From NCBI RefSeq assembly GCF_037975245.1, contig NC_092579.1:24039166-24103165 (forward strand): 64,000 bases of DNA, in the 5' to 3' direction. Source of the DNA: Apostichopus japonicus (lineage: Eukaryota > Echinodermata > Holothuroidea > Aspidochirotida > Stichopodidae). Positions 1 through 47,400 of this stretch are shown here, one piece after another. Position 1 is the first letter of the stretch; each line of letters starts with the position of its first letter. The notes under the pieces were generated by a model. That model was not told the origin of the DNA and made no database searches. It saw only the letters and a list, made by a program, of their open reading frames with translations. The position numbers and the translations under genes are program-made.

Positions 1-107
1 TTAAGTTGTGACCATCCTGCACTTCTCACAATCAGAAGCAGTTCCAATAGGCTTTAGTATTACAAACTGTTACATGTATTTGCTAAATGTGCTTTGTCGT
101 GGACCAA

Positions 108-13613: not shown

Positions 13614-13906
13614 ACAGCAGCAGAAATGTGGTACTATGCAGCAGAAATGTGGTACTATGCAGCAGAAATGTGGTACCATGCAGCAGAAATGTGGTACCAT
13701 GCAGCAGAAATGGGGTACCATGCAGCAGAAATGGGGAACCATGCAGCAGAAATGGGGTACCATGCAGCAGAAATGGGGTACCATGCAGCAGAAATGGGGT
13801 ACCATGCAGCAGAAATGGGGTACCATGCAGCAGAAATGGGGTACCATGCAGCAGAAATGCGGTACCATGCAGCAGAAATGCGGTACCATGCAGCAGAAAT
13901 GCGGTA
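13614..13906. repeat. 21-bp minisatellite
   Basis: About fourteen near-identical copies of a 21-bp unit, 'atgcagcagaaatggggtac' plus one base. Variants (tgtgg, tgggg, tgcgg) cluster in blocks, showing stepwise spread along the array. Because 21 is divisible by three and the unit has no stop codon in several frames, it creates long repeated reading frames on both strands. None has splice or codon context suggesting a protein. Confidence 0.96.
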
Positions 13907-13929
13907 CTTCCCTTGATTTCTTACCCAAA

Positions 13930-24127: not shown

Positions 24128-27100
24128 GTAATGGAATTATTGTTGCAAGAACCAACCTTTATTAATAAAGTTCCTTTTTTCTTAATAGGTACACCTGCCA
24201 GAGAGTGCTTGAAATTACTAGAACGTCTTAAAGAGTTAACAATTTTGACCTTCCATCATAGAACTGTATGTACCTTTAAGTGTAGCTCATGGCTACCAAT
24301 ATGTTCTATATTGATTTTATACTTTAGTATGTTAGTGAAGTGTAAGGTTTCAATCAAAATTAAAAACAGAAGTGAAATAAAATAATTCGATTTTACAAAA
24401 AAAAAGTGTGTAATGGAATTATTGTTGCAAGAACCAACTTTTATAAATAAAGTTCCTTTCTTCTTAATAGGCACACCTGCCAGAGGGTGCTTGAAATTGC
24501 TAGAACGTCTTAAAGAGTTAACAGTTTAGACCTTCAATCATAGTTGTATGTACCTTTAAGTGTAGCTCAGGGCTACCAATATGTCTGAATAGATTTTATA
24601 CTTTAGTAAGTTAGTGAAGTGTAAGGTTTCAATCAAAATTTAAAACAGAAGTGAAAAAAAAACTGCACCTGATCAGCTGACCACTGACTTCTAGCCTCCC
24701 AAGTCTCTGTGTGTAGCCACAGTACAGCAGTTTGACTGTGGTGAACAATGAGAGCTGTATAGGAGGTTGCTGTATGTAAACAGATCCCATCCCAAGACAC
24801 CCATTTAAAAGATGGATCACATGTCTGGGAATAAAACATAGTCAGAAGGATTCATTACAAAATACTCACATCATGTGAATTAAATAAATATGAGAAATAG
24901 CGATAATAAAGTAGTAGAACATTTTAACACAAAATGAAGGGGTCAGCTGTGCTCCCCTATTCGGCACGAAAACTTTGGACTTTGAACTGAGATTACAATT
25001 ATCTATCCTATCAGCAAAAGTAAGTTTGTTCCCCAACTTCCCCACGCACCCTTCATTGAATATCTGTTACCTATCCTACCATGGTTACACAAGCTGTTTA
25101 CCCTGTCTACCTGGTTACATCATTGGCCTTACTTTACTATGTCTTCCTAATTACATCATTGGCCTTACTTTACTATTTCTTCCTGGTTACATCATTGGCC
25201 TTACTTTACTATGTCTTCCTGGTTACATCATTGGCCTTACTTTACTATGTCTTCCTGGTTACATCATTGACCTTACTTTACTATGTCTTCCTGGTTACAT
25301 CATTGACCTTACTTTACTATGTCTTCCTGGTTACATCATTGGCCTTACTTTACTATGTCTTCCTGGTTACATCATTGGCCTTACTTTACTATGTCTTCCT
25401 GGTTACATCATTGACCTTACTTTACTATGTCTTCCTGCTTACATCATTGACCTTACTTTACTATGTCTACCTGCTTACATCATTGGCCTTACTTTACTAT
25501 GTCTTCCTGCTTACATCATTGACCTTACTTTACTATGTCTTCCTGGTTACATCATTGACCTTACTTTACTACGTCTTCCTGGTTACATCATTGGCCTTAC
25601 TTTACTACTTCTTCCTGGTTACATCATTGACCTTACTTTACTACGTCTTCCTGGTTACATCATTGGCCTTACTTTACTATGTCTTCCTGCTTACATCATT
25701 GACCTTACTTTATTAAATTACCCTTTGTAACATCACTCTTCACACACAGGTTCTTTCAGTAACATGGACAGTTCTGCTGAAGGTAGTTTCTTTTCCAACT
25801 GATTAGACAATACATGTATGGTATTTTCCTCACGCCACCTCACCTTCAGAACTACCATACTTGTCACATTTACCTGTAAGACTCCCAGGTGTCTTAAGGA
25901 TAAATTATCCTTGGTATTCTTCACTTCCTCTTTTATCTCATTCACAGGGCGAGCCTCTCTCGGTTGCCTCCTTTCAGTGTTGCATGTAGATTCTGAGGTA
26001 GCACTAGGGGTACAGTTAGGACTCAACCCAACTTCAAGAGAGGGGGACCTTCTTTCATCCATGCAGCTATTACTGTCCTCTCCTGCGTTCAAATGGTCCG
26101 CTGCAGAATCAGTCTTTCTCCTCCTTCTCTTCCTCCTTGTGTTTTTGTTATGAGAAAGCCTGGACAGTTTTATAGATTGCTTATCTCCACAATCAATCTC
26201 TTTTGAATGTCCAGCACTTCCACTATGACATGACTTATTTTCAAGAACATCTATGGAAGATTGCACAGTCTCATGATATCTCATGATAAGACTCTCATGC
26301 CTATCAACAGACTGAGTGTCATCATGGTGGAATCCATCGGTCTCGTTCTCAATCGGACTGTCTTCCAGTTTGAAAGAAATACTCTTGCGCAATGATTTCT
26401 GGTTCGTCTTGCTGGATTTGCCAGTCATCTCTGCCTCGCTTCGATTCATTCTCTTTTCTGGAGAATCGATCGTTTGGTATGAACTCCCTGTAGGGTTTGA
26501 AGTAGTTTTAAAATACTGTTCGGGACTGGGAGCATTGCCCTGTTCGGCCACGATTCTTCGAACATGGTTTTTGGCATGTTTTCTGCTCTCAGATTTCTGT
26601 AAGGATGACACAAGTTCATTTTACCTCAAAAATATTCTACAGGTTGCACAGGTATAAACAATGTTAGACAGGCACATTGGGCAAAAGAGTCACTCATTTC
26701 AAAGCCCTAGACATAAATTCTGGCAATTTTTTACCAAACATAAAATTTGTTTGATAAATTGACCGAACATCTTGAAAAACTTAATGGAAGGAGATTCTTA
26801 TTAGAAATAACTTCCCAAATTATGAAAATGTTTGGTCATAAGATATATATTTAATATGTCATCCCTTACTTCCATTGAAGAATGCTCATTATTCGCAATC
26901 GTAAAATATTGTACTGACAAATCTACTTACAGACAACTCTACGTACAGACAAATGACAGTACTTACCGTCAACTTCTTCTGCATCTTAGCATATTTCATC
27001 TTCATCTCCTCGAGCTTCCTCTTGATCTGAAGAAACAAAGAGAGAAATCTCTTTGAAAACCCATGTCAAGTATTTGTCATTAAACCTTTTGAAGTCCATC

Positions 27101-30309: not shown

Positions 30310-31222
30310 TTTTCAGATATCTGAAATTGAATTCGAGATATCTTAAATAGATTTAGAGATATCTGAAATTCTAATTCAGATATCTGAAATTGAATTCGAG
30401 ATATCTGAAATTGAATTCGAGATATCTTAAATAGATTTCGAGATATCTGAAATTCTAATTCAGATATCTGAAATTCAATTCGAGATATCTGAAATTGAAT
30501 TCGAGATATCTGAAATTCTATTTCAGATATCTTAAATTTAATTCGAGATATCTGAAATTGAATTCGAGATATCTGAAATTGAATTCAAGATATCTGCAAT
30601 TCTAATTCGAGATATCTGAAATTGAATTCGAGATATCTGCAATTGAATTCGAGATATCTGAAATGCATATGCATAAATTTCCGAATAAATGTTAAAATGG
30701 CACGTATGGAAAGCCATTTTAACATTTAATCGGGAAATTTCAGATATCTGTAATTGAATTCGAGATATCTGAAATTGAATTCGAGATATCTAAAATTCTA
30801 TTTCAGATATCTGAAATTGAATTCGAGATATCTAAAATTCTATTTCAGATATCTGAAATTGAATTCGAGATATCTGAAATGGAATTCGAGATATCTGAAA
30901 ATGAATTCGAGATATCTGAAATTTTATTTCAGATATCTGAAATTGAATTCGAGATATCTGAAATTGAATTCGAGATATCCAAAATTCTATTTCAGATATC
31001 TGAAATTGAATTCGAGATATCCGAAATTGAATTCGAGATATCTGAAATTGAATTCGAGATATCTCGAATTCAATTTCAGATATCTGAAATTCCCTGGTAT
31101 TTCGAGATATCTGAAATTGATTTTAAGATATCTGCAATTATTTGTAGATATCTTAAATAAATTGGAGATATCTGTAATTTAATTTGAGATATCTGAAATT
31201 ATTTCGAGATATCTGAAATTCC
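30310..31222. repeat. 21-bp palindrome-rich satellite array
   Basis: About forty copies of a 21-bp unit, 'gaattcgagatatctgaaat' plus one base, alternate with variants such as TTTCAGATATCTGAAA, a perfect palindrome. Units occur in both orientations. The array creates reading frames (for example 30754-31182) that are not genes. Confidence 0.93.
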
Positions 31223-41885: not shown

Positions 41886-43733
41886 TTACTTTTTGCCTAT
41901 GTAGGCGTTACTCTCTGCGCGTTCCCTATAGAGATCCTCCAATTCTTGATAAGGGTCGCAGAACACGTCATCAAAATCCTGGTAATTTCTGTCTTGAGGT
42001 ACTTTGCCGCTGGGGTGGCGCTCTCTTTTCCTTGTTGGTCGGAATTTATTCATTTCAGTGACGTGTTCGGGCTCAATCTTCTCTGGTACCGGGAGGGTGG
42101 CTGAATAGTAAGACGGTGGCGGTAGTGAGCCCTCCTCACTGCTGTGCATATCCACGTAAGACACATCATGCGGTTGTTCGGCCTGCAGGGGTTGGGATGC
42201 GTTGTTCTCGGACACCGAGTCTAACCTCTTGAGGGGAACGTCTGGAAGAGTTCGGTGCATGGTCAACACAGATGATGGTCTGTCAGATGCGATACTTGTT
42301 TGCATAGCCCGTGGACCAAACAACAATCCTTCTTCTGTCATGAGGTATTTCTTTGAGGAGGATGAATCTATGCGGCTGTTCGCGTTTGGAAATCCCTCGA
42401 TTTGAGGGTATTTTCTTCGCCACACACAAACGATGCACTTGCCGATCAGATAAATTATGAAGACCATACCTAGTAAACTGAGAAGTATGATCAGGGTAAA
42501 TGTAAACTTGTGTTCTTTCCAGTAAAATGGAACATGAAGTGACATGTCAAAGTCTGCAAGAGTACAGGATTGATTTTGGTGGCTGGGGTATTCTTGTCGA
42601 GCAATCCGGATATCTGTCGATGCTTCAAGGGTAACACCATTATCGATTTGAACTTGGCATGATATAATTTGGACATCATCACTCATAGATGTGTTGGTGA
42701 GTTTCAATGCCTGCCCTTCGTGGCTGATCAAATACCTGTCGTTCGTGTTACTCTTCGATATCTTCCTCCCGGCGAAAAACCATTCGATGGGAAAGTCCTT
42801 TAAGACGTGTGAACGTGTGCAAACGAAAGATATCTCTCCACCCTCCACGACTTCTGGATCTTGAGGAAGAATTACGACTTCTGCGCCGTTCATTTTATCG
42901 TGATTTTCTACCAAAACAGTGATGCTCTTTACAGAGTTTCCGACCAAATTTTCAGCCGAGCATATAATTTCTGATCCGTTCCAAGATAGAGGGACATGTC
43001 TAATGGACACCTCTCCGAGCTCGTTACTTCTCAAAGAAACGTCAACATCGTCGGTTTGCGGAACACCGTTTTCATTCGTAAACTGTCGGTAGCATGACAG
43101 AGGCTTTCGTAGGGCTGGTCCTGCCATGACAAAAACAGAAAACTTTGTGGTTCCACCAAGGACAAAGCTTGGTTTCTCCGGGAACAATGAAATGCGAGGT
43201 TTGTTGACTACACACGAACGTTGGTCGACTATGTCCCCGTCGCTGTAGTAGAACCTACAGACGTATTCACCGTCAATTGACGACACGTTTGCAATGGTCA
43301 TGACATTCTCGTAGTACATATAATCCCGGAAAATGACGGAATTACTTTTTTCGATACCGTCGTGATACCAAACCAGTTTCGGAGGAGGAACAGATCTTTC
43401 AGCGTAACAATCAAGCTTGAGATTATCTTTTGCATCGCCTTCCCATGAAGCGGAACAAACTGGAAACTTTGCAGACGGTGGCGTCATCATTTCGAGCTTG
43501 TGTCTATTGGATCCAAGCCGCCATTCTGTGCCATCGAAAATCGCACACTGGTACACGCTTGCATCTTCTGGTATGACATCCTGAATCTGAAACTCAATTA
43601 CGATACGATCAGGGTTGCGGTAACCGCTAATCTGAAATCGCGATTCAGACACCGTGGTAGTAGACAGTGTCCATGTAGCTAGATATTGGTAATCCTCGCC
43701 TGTGTTCCTTCGGACAACCCTGATTGTTCCACC
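41886..43733 (-). CDS. Ig-receptor exon 2: Ig domains, TM, cytoplasmic tail
   Basis: The 615-codon exon starts [20 protein letters not shown] after acceptor 'ttcttatag' and runs to TAA at 41888-41886. The uninterrupted frame is far longer than chance, and it encodes most of the protein in a single exon. It completes the first Ig domain (DASVYQC) opened by exon 1. Confidence 0.93.
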   Translation of the reverse strand, partial: GGTIRVVRRNTGEDYQYLATWTLSTTTVSESRFQISGYRNPDRIVIEFQIQDVIPEDASVYQCAIFDGTEWRLGSNRHKLEMMTPPSAKFPVCSASWEGDAKDNLKLDCYAERSVPPPKLVWYHDGIEKSNSVIFRDYMYYENVMTIANVSSIDGEYVCRFYYSDGDIVDQRSCVVNKPRISLFPEKPSFVLGGTTKFSVFVMAGPALRKPLSCYRQFTNENGVPQTDDVDVSLRSNELGEVSIRHVPLSWNGSEIICSAENLVGNSVKSITVLVENHDKMNGAEVVILPQDPEVVEGGEISFVCTRSHVLKDFPIEWFFAGRKISKSNTNDRYLISHEGQALKLTNTSMSDDVQIISCQVQIDNGVTLEASTDIRIARQEYPSHQNQSCTLADFDMSLHVPFYWKEHKFTFTLIILLSLLGMVFIIYLIGKCIVCVWRRKYPQIEGFPNANSRIDSSSSKKYLMTEEGLLFGPRAMQTSIASDRPSSVLTMHRTLPDVPLKRLDSVSENNASQPLQAEQPHDVSYVDMHSSEEGSLPPPSYYSATLPVPEKIEPEHVTEMNKFRPTRKRERHPSGKVPQDRNYQDFDDVFCDPYQELEDLYRERAESNAYIGKK

Positions 43734-44021
43734 CTATAAGAAAATATTAAGAAAGGAAAAAAAATCAAAATAAAATGAAAATAAAATAAAACTGTTAGCA
43801 AACTGCTTATCCACTAGAGAGCCTGTGTAATAGAATGTGTAAAAAGCCTCTGAAGAAGATCCTGCTAGGATCGAAACGTCAGGCCAACTTACTTTTACAC
43901 AAAGGAAAAAATGATAGTTACAAAACTTTGTTTCACCTGACCAGCTATAGAACACAAAACAGCCCATACTGAAGACTGTTTATTATATTGCGAAGACGCA
44001 ACGCAACAATAATCATCGACA

Positions 44022-44096
<75 letters not shown>

Positions 44097-44313
44097 TAGG
44101 TTGGCGTCTATCTTGGCGCAGAGTGCTCTATGTCCATTGGACAGAGCGGAATATATGTTGATACTAGATGAGACTAGTGGAACACTAGTAGTTGTAACTC
44201 GGAGTTTCACGCTTTATTGCGATCTTCAGACAACTCTTTGTTGTCTGAAGATCGCAATAAAGCGTGAAACTCCGAGTTACAACTACTAGTGTTCCACTAG
44301 TCTCATCTAGTAT

Positions 44314-44406
<93 letters not shown>

Positions 44407-47400
44407 TGAGTTACACCCAACCCCACCCCAACCCCCTGATTAAAACAATTGTAATGGATGCTTTCCTCGCAAATATTCGTATAATCAGCTGATACTGTAC
44501 AGTATCCGTACACGAATTGTACAGTATCCATACACGAACTCTACAAGACTTGTAAAGGTTTCAATAAATGACAGTCACATGTCAACGAAATAATCTTTAA
44601 TAGATTAATTTTGTTATTTTGACCTGATTAATTTCGCAAGAGATATGTACAGAAATCGAACTATTTGCCCCTGAAAGTTCAAATGTTAAACTTGATGAGT
44701 CAACATGTGTGTCGTATAGGGTTCCTCTGCAAGTGAATCGCAGTCTCTATACCAATGTGTCATTGTCATTCACTTTAACTTTGGTTGTATATTGTTCAGG
44801 GAAGTGTTAGAAACGTTTGAATTTCTGTCAAAGTGGATCATTAGATCTTTAGATGAATTATATTCTTAAAAGTAGGTCATGTAACAATGAAAAGACCCTT
44901 TTGTACTGCAAAACAGCTGTCTGTGACAGACGCATATTATACACACGTCTTTTGAACAAAGGCGTTGTATAAGATAATATTTTTAAAGTTAGCCCTGATA
45001 TTTCGATCTGGACAAAGACGAGAGGCATGCTGACATTGATTACGCACAATGAAGGTCATAGCAATCAAATTCTTTTTCTTCTTCTTCATCTTATTTTTTT
45101 TTGTTTTTTTGCTCTTTGCCTTTTGTGACCCTGGGGTATATGAAGTCACTTCCAAACTGTATCGAATCGCTTCTTTGGATGTCAACCTCTACCGTAATCT
45201 CTCCGCTTTTGATGCAGTAAATCATCGGCTTTTCTTAGATTTAATTAGCCTAACACTCTTGAGGATGAGTCTAATTGAAAATGCTTTTATAGTCGAATTT
45301 CACCCTTTTTGAAATGCATTAATTGAAACTAAGAGCCGTATAATTGAAAAACAGTCTTTACTGCTTAATTTTTATAAACCCTATACTTTATTCTTTTTAT
45401 GTTACAGTTTGGAACATCAATTTCTTGATAGCTTTCTCAGTTGCATTTTCAAGTTTTGCTTCTTTAAAATAACTCGAGTCACGTGTCCTCGTTTCTTCTT
45501 TTTGGCGGGAAGACGTTATTTTAGTAGGTAGACTGACAGAGGGTGTCTGTCTAGAAAGGAGTAATAATTTACTGATTCGGAGGTTTGAATGAAAACATTC
45601 ATTGTTGAACTATATCATATGAGTGTACCCAAACAACGAAAAAGTCAACAGTTTATCCCACACATCAGTTTACATACAATTTTTGTTTATGTTAAGTTTG
45701 GTAAAAGTTTTCGATTTTTTTAAATATTATTTCATAAGCAATACAGTGTATTAGCATCACCATGAAGAATGTCAAATGTCAAATACTGAGAAGAAAGTCT
45801 AACATTATGGTTACAATTTCCGCTTTTTATTTTTGCACTTGATTAATCTAATAACATACATGCATGTTTAATAAGTATAGCAAACGCGTATTGACTTTTT
45901 AGACATGGGTTAAAGGTATTTGATCCGGGAACTCCTCGGGCAATAAACTAATGTGCATAAATCCTCTTGTGCGCGCAATAATTCTGCGTTTGCAATAAGG
46001 AACACATCAAATACATATAGTAACAATAACACTCTAACCTCCTGCATGGTTAATCAATTAATGACAATATGTATCAATTAATGACAATATGTACACAAAA
46101 CACAATGTATAAAGGAATACATTATAGCCTATACACATTGGTCACGAACAAGCGATCTGTTATAGCAGCTATGGAATACCGGTAGTTCATAACACGCGCG
46201 CAAGACTTGGTGTGCTGCTGCCATAATCTGGTTATTATCATTCAGTTTCAAGGCCGCATTCATGGGTTATTATACAGTCATTGAACCATTGTGTCTGGTT
46301 GCCAAAGGCTTATACATTGTAGTTACCAATTAAGTAGAATGTTCATCCGCTAATTACGTTCATTAGTACTAAACAAGTGTTTTACACGTTATATTATGTA
46401 TTGTGTTAACGTCTATAATGGCCATTACGCATCCCATGATCGCCTTATATACGCGTCATTAAAAGGATTGCCTCTATTCCCTATTTAATATTGGTTAAAC
46501 AAATAAATTCCTTCTCCTTACACTCTATACTAGCTCGTGACAAACAAAAGCATGATTTTTAGTTCCATTAGAATCATCACGAACTGATACGCAAAAAATG
46601 ACTAAGCCAGTTGATTTTGAAGGATGAGTTTCTAAAGTAGCAATGATGCTTGACGCTTTAAGATGCGAAAATTGAATCCAAATCTCTCCATCCGTGTGAA
46701 AGTTTTACATCAATTAACATTCCCATATCAGTCGGTCTTGACTTGTCGGAGTTTGTTTTTAACAGTGGCTGGATACAGAACGATACATTGCTTCTATCTT
46801 TCTTTCTCTTAAAGGATTGGTTCAGGTGTCTGACATGTCTATCTTGTATGAAAGAGCTTAAAAAGACAAACAGAATAGTGAAGAAACCACCATGATAGCA
46901 TTCTCCGTTAAGGAGATATCACATTTTGAAGATTTCAAAATTTCTTTGCAAATGACTGGTGTAGAAAGACTAACTGTGAGGGTGTGATGTCACATCCTCA
47001 CTTCCTTAACATGTGTCAATATATTTCATTAAAAACTAATTACATATATTTTCACAAATCTAAAAAAATATAATCAAGCATTCTTCAGATGCTAAATCTC
47101 AAATACTTCCCTTGACACATAAGAGATCTCCTGACGTATATTTTGGTTGTAAGTCATAAAATCTTACAAAATATTTTAATAAAGTAACAAAAACTTTTCA
47201 GGAATGTGAGGATATGACGTCACAGCTAGTCTGATTTCAGCAGTTTCTACACAATCAGATAGAACTTTAAACTTGAATATCTCCTAAACGGAAAAAGATA
47301 TTTGAATAATTTCTTCACTATTGGGTTTCTTTTATTGCCCTCTTTCATATAAGATAAACATTTGTGACACCTGAACTATCCCTTTAAGAGCTGTTTGTCT

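What the first reader, a model, noticed from the sequence alone, without database searches (positions are those of the whole stretch)
44151..44323. Perfect 84-bp inverted repeat carrying two head-to-head hammerhead-like motifs
The arms are exact reverse complements and are bracketed by AT microsatellites. In the right arm, GTTGT (44240-44244) can pair with ACAAC (44279-44283). CTGAAGA, a CGC/GCG stem with AATAAA loop and GAAA follow, then ACT-CCG-AGT as a short third stem, placing the allowed triplet GTT directly before the first stem. This is the layout of a minimal type I hammerhead, except for a T-T mismatch at the base of stem II. The left arm holds the same motif on the other strand. Perfect identity over 84 bp implies recent formation or active correction.
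Basis: partly seen in the sequence, partly recalled or inferred. Interest (0 to 1): 0.72.

Follow-up and report, generated by a model that had tools for sequence, protein, structure and literature searches.

The report
Tiny palindromic Penelope retrotransposon insertion
The perfect inverted repeat is a very short, probably recent landing of a Penelope-type jumping gene, made of two back-to-back copies of its RNA start (which carries a hammerhead-like motif) inserted into a TA repeat, and hundreds of relatives elsewhere in the same genome show how such copies are made.

Summary
In detail: 84-bp arms (44151-44234, 44240-44323), exact complements, 5-nt spacer. The unit is larger: a 57-nt 'tail' (44094-44150, minus) continues the left arm. 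The arm's 3' part has 793 matches in this 671-Mb genome, the tail core 518 (reversed controls 0). Arms lie head-to-head, nearly always with one tail per pair, inside (TA)n. In longer copies the arm adjoins a long frame with RT- and GIY-YIG-like motifs; one reads arm-tail-frame-arm. This is a Penelope-like element (PLE): arm = start of its pseudo-LTR RNA. The window holds a minimal insertion, most likely reverse-transcribed from internal sites on both cut strands, and probably inert. The hammerhead layout is partly supported: in 115 loci the core and stems hardly vary (except the arm's first four bases), and the five recurrent internal variants fall in N7, loop II or H17 (U/A). Against it: no Rfam hammerhead hit, a fixed T.T mismatch, no activity test; a transcript here would fold as an 84-bp hairpin. 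The commonest arm start (84 of 222) is one base before GTTGT, with an apparently untemplated G in 70 of 84, suggesting run-off at a capped RNA end; four loci start at the predicted cleavage site.

The parts
44021..44087 (.). left (TA)n microsatellite, part of the target
   Evidence: TRF; 82 of 90 sampled tails are followed by (TA)6 within 50 nt, window background 0.7%
44094..44150 (-). PLE 'tail', 3' continuation of the left arm (57 nt); in the longer copy L063 this stretch lies between arm and PLE frame (the open frame begins in its last 14 nt, the first ATG beyond it)
   Evidence: a 39-nt core has 518 genome matches at <=2 mismatches, 0 in the reversed control
44151..44234 (-). left arm (tailed): start of the PLE pseudo-LTR RNA; on the minus strand it is preceded by A (44235, 'A0') and G (44236)
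44191..44234 (-). hammerhead-like motif in the left arm; predicted cut between 44196 and 44195
44235..44239 (.). junction between the two 5' ends (TCTTT)
44240..44323 (+). right arm (untailed), same sequence in the other orientation; a 33-nt piece of its 3' part has 793 genome matches at <=2 mismatches
44240..44283 (+). hammerhead-like motif in the right arm; predicted cut between 44278 and 44279
44318..44403 (.). right (AT)n microsatellite, target; 66 of 69 sampled untailed arms are followed by (TA)6 within 50 nt

Best explanation
The feature is a minimal insertion of a Penelope-like retrotransposon family of this animal. The PLE RNA begins at A0, one base before GTTGT, inside the pseudo-LTR (TATA-like box 32 nt upstream, CCA-GTT start), so the hammerhead-like motif is the first ~45 nt of the RNA. 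The element's endonuclease cuts both strands of a (TA)n target. Reverse transcription starts inside the RNA near its 5' end: at the end of the tail on one strand, and at the arm's own ATATAT on the other. Both cDNAs usually run to the RNA 5' end (often adding a G, probably read from the cap), and the two short cDNAs are joined, 5' ends facing. Result: (TA)n-tail-arm / arm-(TA)n. The window copy is an inert product; the hammerhead motif acts, if at all, on full PLE RNA. Shown: anatomy, copy number, orientation, one-tail rule, TA context, start positions, constraint pattern. Inferred: PLE enzymology, cap origin of the G, ribozyme activity.
For: Copies: 61 arm matches from 40 scored of 761 candidates; 793 arm-piece and 518 tail-core matches with 0 in reversed controls. 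Orientation: of 82 loci with one tailed and one untailed arm in view, 81 head-to-head, 1 tail-to-tail (139 loci examined); among the first 100 of 793 listed arms, neighbours within 4 kb are 29 head-to-head, one '+-', one '--'. Of those 29, 27 have exactly one exact tail, 2 none listed, 0 two (only exact tails were listed). TA context: 82 of 90 tails and 66 of 69 untailed arms, background 0.7%. PLE link: L063 holds, on one strand, arm-tail-821-codon open frame-arm, with FDIVEFYPSI, YRDD and CNC..CPL..C / IIY..YIG..R stretches (motif names recalled); 11 of 222 arms are preceded by the whole 75-nt piece that ends this frame. RNA 5' end: 84 of 222 arms start at A0, 70 of 84 preceded by G (A 10, T 4), whereas all 31 copies with matching upstream sequence (27 distinct) have C there. 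Literature: PLE tail optional on one of the inverted pLTRs, head-to-head palindromes, AT-rich targets (PMC3846280, passages); a PLE protein that cuts and extends both strands at AT-rich DNA, starts RT internally at two sites that define the tail, with an HHR at the pLTR-ORF junction (PMC11167929, main text).
Against: No profile confirms the frame: Pfam no family up to E 10, NCBIfam only a weak ribosomal L23 match (E 0.014, far below cut-off), PDB nothing relevant up to E 10; RT/EN calling is by eye. Target-site duplications cannot be seen in TA repeats. The one-tail rule is stronger than the cited in-vitro work predicts (no start-site difference between strands was seen there). The G before A0 could come from an unseen master copy with G at that place; a genome count to test this did not complete. 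The G excess is weaker for arms starting at -1 (14 of 25) and absent for those at +1 (2 of 15). Of 89 sampled stretches, 6 showed no scorable arm and 16 only an untailed one.
Confidence: 0.86

Rival explanations
1. Same PLE family, but the head-to-head form arises by self-priming or fold-back of one cDNA (or from an antisense template), as proposed for rotifer Penelope, not by two separate initiations.
For: Proposed in print for PLE palindromes (PMC3846280, passages). In 53 of 82 pairs both arms start within -4..6, 24 of these 53 at the same position; some truncated pairs are symmetrical (39/39 twice, 43/43, 46/46). Arms of a locus are more alike than arms of different loci.
Against: Of the 29 other pairs, 24 differ by more than 5 nt in start (0/24, 43/0, 54/0, 67/0 and so on; some starts are overstated where ungapped extension stopped at an indel). 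One tail per pair: a fold-back copy of a tailed arm should often copy the tail too. The untailed end nearly always meets (TA)n (66 of 69).
Confidence: 0.25
2. A fold-back DNA transposon or MITE with 84-bp terminal inverted repeats moved by a transposase.
For: Perfect inverted arms, short spacer, TA-rich target, hundreds of copies.
Against: The two outer ends differ (tail on one side only), inner ends are variably truncated, and arm and tail are parts of an element with a long RT/EN-like frame.
Confidence: 0.03
3. A retrozyme-type or satellite ribozyme element: a small self-cleaving circular RNA with its own life cycle.
For: Type I-like hammerhead in a small repeated non-coding unit of an animal; retrozymes are thought to be moved by PLEs (PMC7229834, passages).
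Against: Pairs are head-to-head rather than tandem, there are no canonical loops, and the arm is contiguous with a PLE-like frame.
Confidence: 0.04
4. The hammerhead resemblance is accidental or decayed: a PLE promoter-proximal sequence without ribozyme function.
For: No Rfam hit; fixed T.T at 10.1/11.1; predicted hammerhead fold only -2.0 kcal/mol against -4.7 for the best fold of the 44 nt; a published PLE HHR did not cleave without protein and was not needed for insertion in vitro.
Against: Recurrent variants (minor base in >=3 of 115 loci) at positions 5-44 are five, all at permissive places (N7, loop II x3, H17 as U or A): chance 0.0007-0.002 if the five are independent, which subfamily descent may break. 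Four loci (L042, L059, L082, L124) start at the predicted cut (P about 0.002-0.02).
Confidence: 0.3

Closest known systems
Penelope/Poseidon PLE of Anolis carolinensis, PAc (PMC11167929, main text read)
   Same: HHR at the pLTR-ORF junction, AT-rich targets, RT start inside the RNA near its 5' end, tail between two RT start sites, both strands cut and extended
   Different: Here hundreds of short head-to-head copies, nearly all sampled pairs with exactly one tail; the HHR-like motif lies before, not across, the start of the frame; target is (TA)n
Penelope families of the rotifer Adineta vaga (PMC3846280, passages read)
   Same: Inverted pLTR head-to-head with palindrome, optional tail on one of them, TATA box and initiator-like sequence in the pLTR, frame of similar size (842 aa there, 821 codons here)
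   Different: Very low copy number there; palindromic junctions were read as self-priming; the word hammerhead does not occur in that text
Minimal hammerhead ribozymes of PLEs and Terminons (Cervera and de la Pena 2014, not held; described in PMC6155905 and PMC7229834, passages read)
   Same: Minimal type I layout without the loop-loop contacts
   Different: Those usually lack helix III; here a 3-bp helix III can form; invariant T.T at the base of stem II; no Rfam match
Metazoan retrozymes (PMC7229834, abstract and passages read)
   Same: Small non-coding repeats with type I hammerheads, possibly PLE-moved
   Different: Tandem and circular there; here head-to-head and part of a PLE

Membership tests
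Penelope-like element | single ORF with telomerase-like RT and GIY-YIG endonuclease | tested here: inconclusive
   821-codon open frame between the arms of L063 with RT- and EN-like motifs by eye; no relevant Pfam, NCBIfam or PDB match
Penelope-like element | pseudo-LTRs: direct copies around the ORF and/or an inverted copy head-to-head | tested here: met
   arm-tail-frame-arm in L063; 81 of 82 one-tailed pairs head-to-head
Penelope-like element | optional 3' tail on one of the inverted pLTRs | tested here: met
   27 of 29 pairs with exactly one listed exact tail, 2 with none listed, none with two
Penelope-like element | insertion into simple AT-rich DNA | tested here: met
   82 of 90 tails and 66 of 69 untailed arms next to (TA)6
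Penelope-like element | target-site duplication | not testable with these tools
   hidden by the TA repeat; no empty sites held
Hammerhead ribozyme type I (minimal) | core CUGANGA ... GAA A ... UH | tested here: met
   present; the 9 core columns scored hold 2 minor bases in 9 x 115; H17 is U (90) or A (25)
Hammerhead ribozyme type I (minimal) | three helices, with a closing pair 10.1-11.1 in stem II | tested here: not met
   stems I-III can form, but 10.1/11.1 is T.T in 115 of 115 loci
Hammerhead ribozyme type I (minimal) | match to a curated hammerhead model | tested here: not met
   no Rfam hammerhead hit up to E 10
Hammerhead ribozyme type I (minimal) | self-cleavage at H17 | not testable with these tools
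   only indirect: four loci begin at the predicted cut
Metazoan retrozyme | tandem non-coding repeats with canonical type I HHR, no ORF | tested here: not met
   head-to-head, contiguous with a PLE-like frame
Fold-back DNA transposon/MITE | identical outer termini (TIR ends) | tested here: not met
   one end bears a tail, the other does not

The most novel reading that the evidence does not exclude
The hundreds of tiny palindromes are a natural record of PLE integration: each joins two cDNAs made on the two cut strands, one started at the tail end and one at the arm end, and their inner ends record the 5' ends of the RNAs used: mostly the capped start (A0 plus a cap-derived G) and occasionally the end left by hammerhead cleavage. 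That would show in vivo which RNAs, capped or ribozyme-cut, serve as PLE templates.
Probability: 0.4. Interest if true: 0.7.

Novelty: new member of a known kind. Interest (0 to 1): 0.48.

Why it matters
PLE integration is poorly understood: why copies lie head-to-head, what the tail is, and what the conserved hammerhead does are open. A family with hundreds of minimal, near-identical insertions turns these into countable junction statistics: the one-tail rule, the RNA start site, an apparently untemplated G, and a few starts at the ribozyme cut site. It also shows that a perfect hairpin with ribozyme motifs can be an ordinary integration by-product.

Tried and rejected
Rejected: miRNA precursors (Rfam matches to MIR9555, MIR395 and others, all below their gathering scores and of the kind any long hairpin gives). 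Rejected: assembly fold-back artefact (the flanks of the two arms differ and many loci share the form). Rejected: my first reading that the PLE frame runs into the hammerhead (note); its stop codon ends 7 nt before A0 (my notes say 8). Dropped as not real cut-site starts after inspection: L002 (ACAAC shared with the other arm) and L141 (altered full arm). Led nowhere: IMG/VR pattern scans for the arm (0; one 29-nt match, L031, looked at and not pursued) and for the second motif (0); the search for related loci with the PLE frame (none). ARAGORN on L016, L021, L023 and L058 found one tRNA-like hit, in the flank of L016, and none in the SINE-like units. Searches of the held paper library for PLE-moved SINEs and for start sites, caps or template jumps in PLEs, of which I saw listings only, showed nothing on point. 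For untemplated bases at retroelement 5' ends I saw passages of PMC5860796 on LINE-1; the cap explanation itself is recalled.

Limits: only 40 of 761 and 40 of 774 first-look candidates were scored; pattern listings show the first 100 places. The 89 stretches L066-L154 cover 90 of the 100 tail places listed; the other 10 were already held. Positions 1-4 of the arm were left out of the constraint test because they vary (5 to 10 of 115 loci each) and lie at the truncation edge; that this is the cause is inferred. Counts of loci are not counts of independent events.

Full report
What is there. The window (0.32-0.44 G+C in 2-kb steps) lies at G000:C19:24039166-24103165 of a 671.6-Mb genome in 35 contigs; Ig domains on a minus-strand frame at 41886-43733 fit an animal (inference). 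The arms 44151-44234 and 44240-44323 are exact reverse complements with TCTTT between. Rfam has no hammerhead hit: 0 families at gathering threshold in the window, none among the 37 matches up to E 10 in 43700-44500, none in the 55-nt motif.

Copies. The 89-nt right arm finds 61 places in the genome (40 of 761 candidates scored, so a lower bound); those spanning the arm are 98-100% identical. A 33-nt piece of the arm's 3' part occurs 793 times and a 39-nt core of the adjoining tail 518 times at up to two mismatches, with 0 in reversed-pattern controls. In 50 distinct loci from the first two searches, 32 read tail-arm-arm or arm-arm-tail with arms head-to-head. With 89 more stretches, 82 of 139 loci hold one tailed and one untailed arm: 81 head-to-head, 1 tail-to-tail; the rest show a single arm (46), no scorable arm (7) or other forms (4) within the view. 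Independently, among the first 100 of 793 arm places listed, neighbours closer than 4 kb are 29 head-to-head, 1 the other way, 1 parallel.

One tail. Of those 29 head-to-head pairs, 27 have exactly one exact-match tail (14 right, 13 left), 2 have none listed and none has two; with independent tails at one half this has probability 8e-7. Only exact tails were listed, so tails with mismatches are not counted there. In the window the tail is 44094-44150, on the left arm. Tail ends and untailed arm ends abut TA repeats: (TA)6 within 50 nt at 82 of 90 tail sites (of the other 8, 4 run on into the frame start and 4 have broken TA or TC/TA runs) and 66 of 69 untailed arms, against 0.7% of random window stretches.

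Identity. In L063 one strand reads arm (from position 10), tail, an 821-codon open frame (beginning in the tail's last 14 nt, first ATG beyond it), full arm, TA repeat. The frame holds FISFDIVEFYPSI and YRDDG (RT motifs A and C, recalled) and CNC..CPL..C ... IIY ... YIG ... R (endonuclease-like, recalled). A second, diverged family in the same genome aligns to it in the YIG part at 49% over 57 residues. Eleven of 222 arms are preceded by the whole 75-nt piece in which this frame ends. Pfam, NCBIfam and PDB sequence searches give nothing relevant, so the protein is named by motif and by element anatomy. That anatomy matches Penelope-like elements as described for Adineta vaga (inverted pLTR head-to-head, palindromes, tail optional on one of them, simple AT-rich targets; PMC3846280, passages) and for the Anolis element PAc (PMC11167929, main text). 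Minimal hammerheads in PLEs are established (PMC6155905 and PMC7229834, passages).

How it works. The tail lies between arm and frame, so reverse transcription that yields arm+tail or arm alone must start inside the RNA, close to its 5' end, as PAc does in vitro at two sites that define its tail. PAc also cuts and extends both strands. Two such short cDNAs joined at their far ends give the observed form. The arm carries ATATAT at its 3' end, which matches a (TA)n primer; this could place the untailed start (inference).

RNA 5' end. Of 222 arms, 84 begin exactly at A0 (one base before GTTGT), 25 at -1, 15 at +1, 11 at -3. The base before A0 is G in 70 of 84 (A 10, T 4; C cannot occur by construction), while all 31 copies with matching upstream sequence (27 distinct, since L062-L065 overlap earlier loci) have C there. 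G also precedes 14 of 25 arms starting at -1 and 10 of 11 at -3, but only 2 of 15 at +1, where T prevails (12 of 15), so the pattern is not uniform. A TATATATT box begins 32 nt before A0 in the four loci printed (L017, L018, L034, L049), and the start reads CCA-GTT. The simplest reading is a transcript starting at A0 whose cap adds a G to the copy; the cap reading rests on recalled knowledge of other retroelements, and an unseen master with G there is not excluded.

Hammerhead. In 115 loci (one full-length arm each) the recurrent variants inside positions 5-44 are five: N7 (A 105, C 9, T 1), loop II positions 17, 19 and 22, and H17 (T 90, A 25); stems II and III and the scored core bases have 0 or 1 minor base per column, and T.T is invariant. 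The first four bases of stem I vary in 5 to 10 loci each; they lie at the truncation edge and were left out. All five falling in hammerhead-permissive positions has chance 0.0007 (11 of 40 positions) to 0.002 (13 of 40) if they are independent. A working or recently working ribozyme would show this, but positions 45-73 are almost invariant too, so the family is simply young as well. Of 33 loci with an arm start between 15 and 72, six were called at 39/40; four (L042, L059, L082, L124) stand after inspection and L002 and L141 were dropped. Poisson chance is 0.002 for one position, 0.02 for two: suggestive only. In PAc the HHR needed protein and was dispensable for insertion in vitro.

At this locus. 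A transcript through both arms folds as a perfect 84-bp hairpin (-153.7 kcal/mol), and the hammerhead fold of the 44 nt alone is weak (-2.0 against -4.7 for the best fold). The window copy should therefore be an inert insertion about 0.4 kb from the Ig-type frame. Arm identity needs no correction: the arms of one insertion differ by 0.96 on average against 2.41 between loci (24 pairs).

Two initiations or fold-back. In 53 of 82 pairs both arms reach the RNA start region; of the other 29, 24 differ in start by more than 5 nt, which favours two separate copies, but five agree within 5 nt and fold-back remains possible for those. Some of these starts are shifted where the ungapped extension stopped at an indel.

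Noticed in passing
window 43846-43884 (+): A second hammerhead-like stretch, GCCT CTGAAGA ..GATCC-TGCTA-GGATC.. GAAACGTC AGGC, without helix III, of the minimal kind described for PLEs; 0.2-0.3 kb from the insertion. Rfam gives no hammerhead hit, IMG/VR none; a genome count did not complete.
   Followed up: partly
L021 330-1222, L023 976-1369, L058 1216-1400: A SINE-like unit (tRNA-like A/B boxes by eye; ARAGORN finds no tRNA there) joined at its (ATATC)n end to the last ~12 nt before A0 plus the arm of the PLE: 19 exact junctions genome-wide, 88 matches of the unit's core, some spaced ~375 bp in tandem. Possibly a SINE moved by a Penelope element rather than a LINE.
   Followed up: partly
L065 8772-9655 (-): Fragments of a second, diverged PLE family (endonuclease-like part 49% identical over 57 residues) right beside a copy of the first.
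   Followed up: no
window 41886-43733 (-): Long frame with several Ig domains (Pfam) and, by eye, a membrane segment; the insertion is about 0.4 kb from its upstream end.
   Followed up: no
window 13617-13907, 25097-25712, 30315-31220: Minisatellites with periods of 21, 36 and 21 bp (multiples of three) that are open over long stretches in one or more frames.
   Followed up: no
loci L038, L044, L079, L153: Four different sites share the same odd truncation (arm starts 46 and 56), centred on the ACTAGTGTTCCACTAGT hairpin of the arm; may be a fold-back product class.
   Followed up: no
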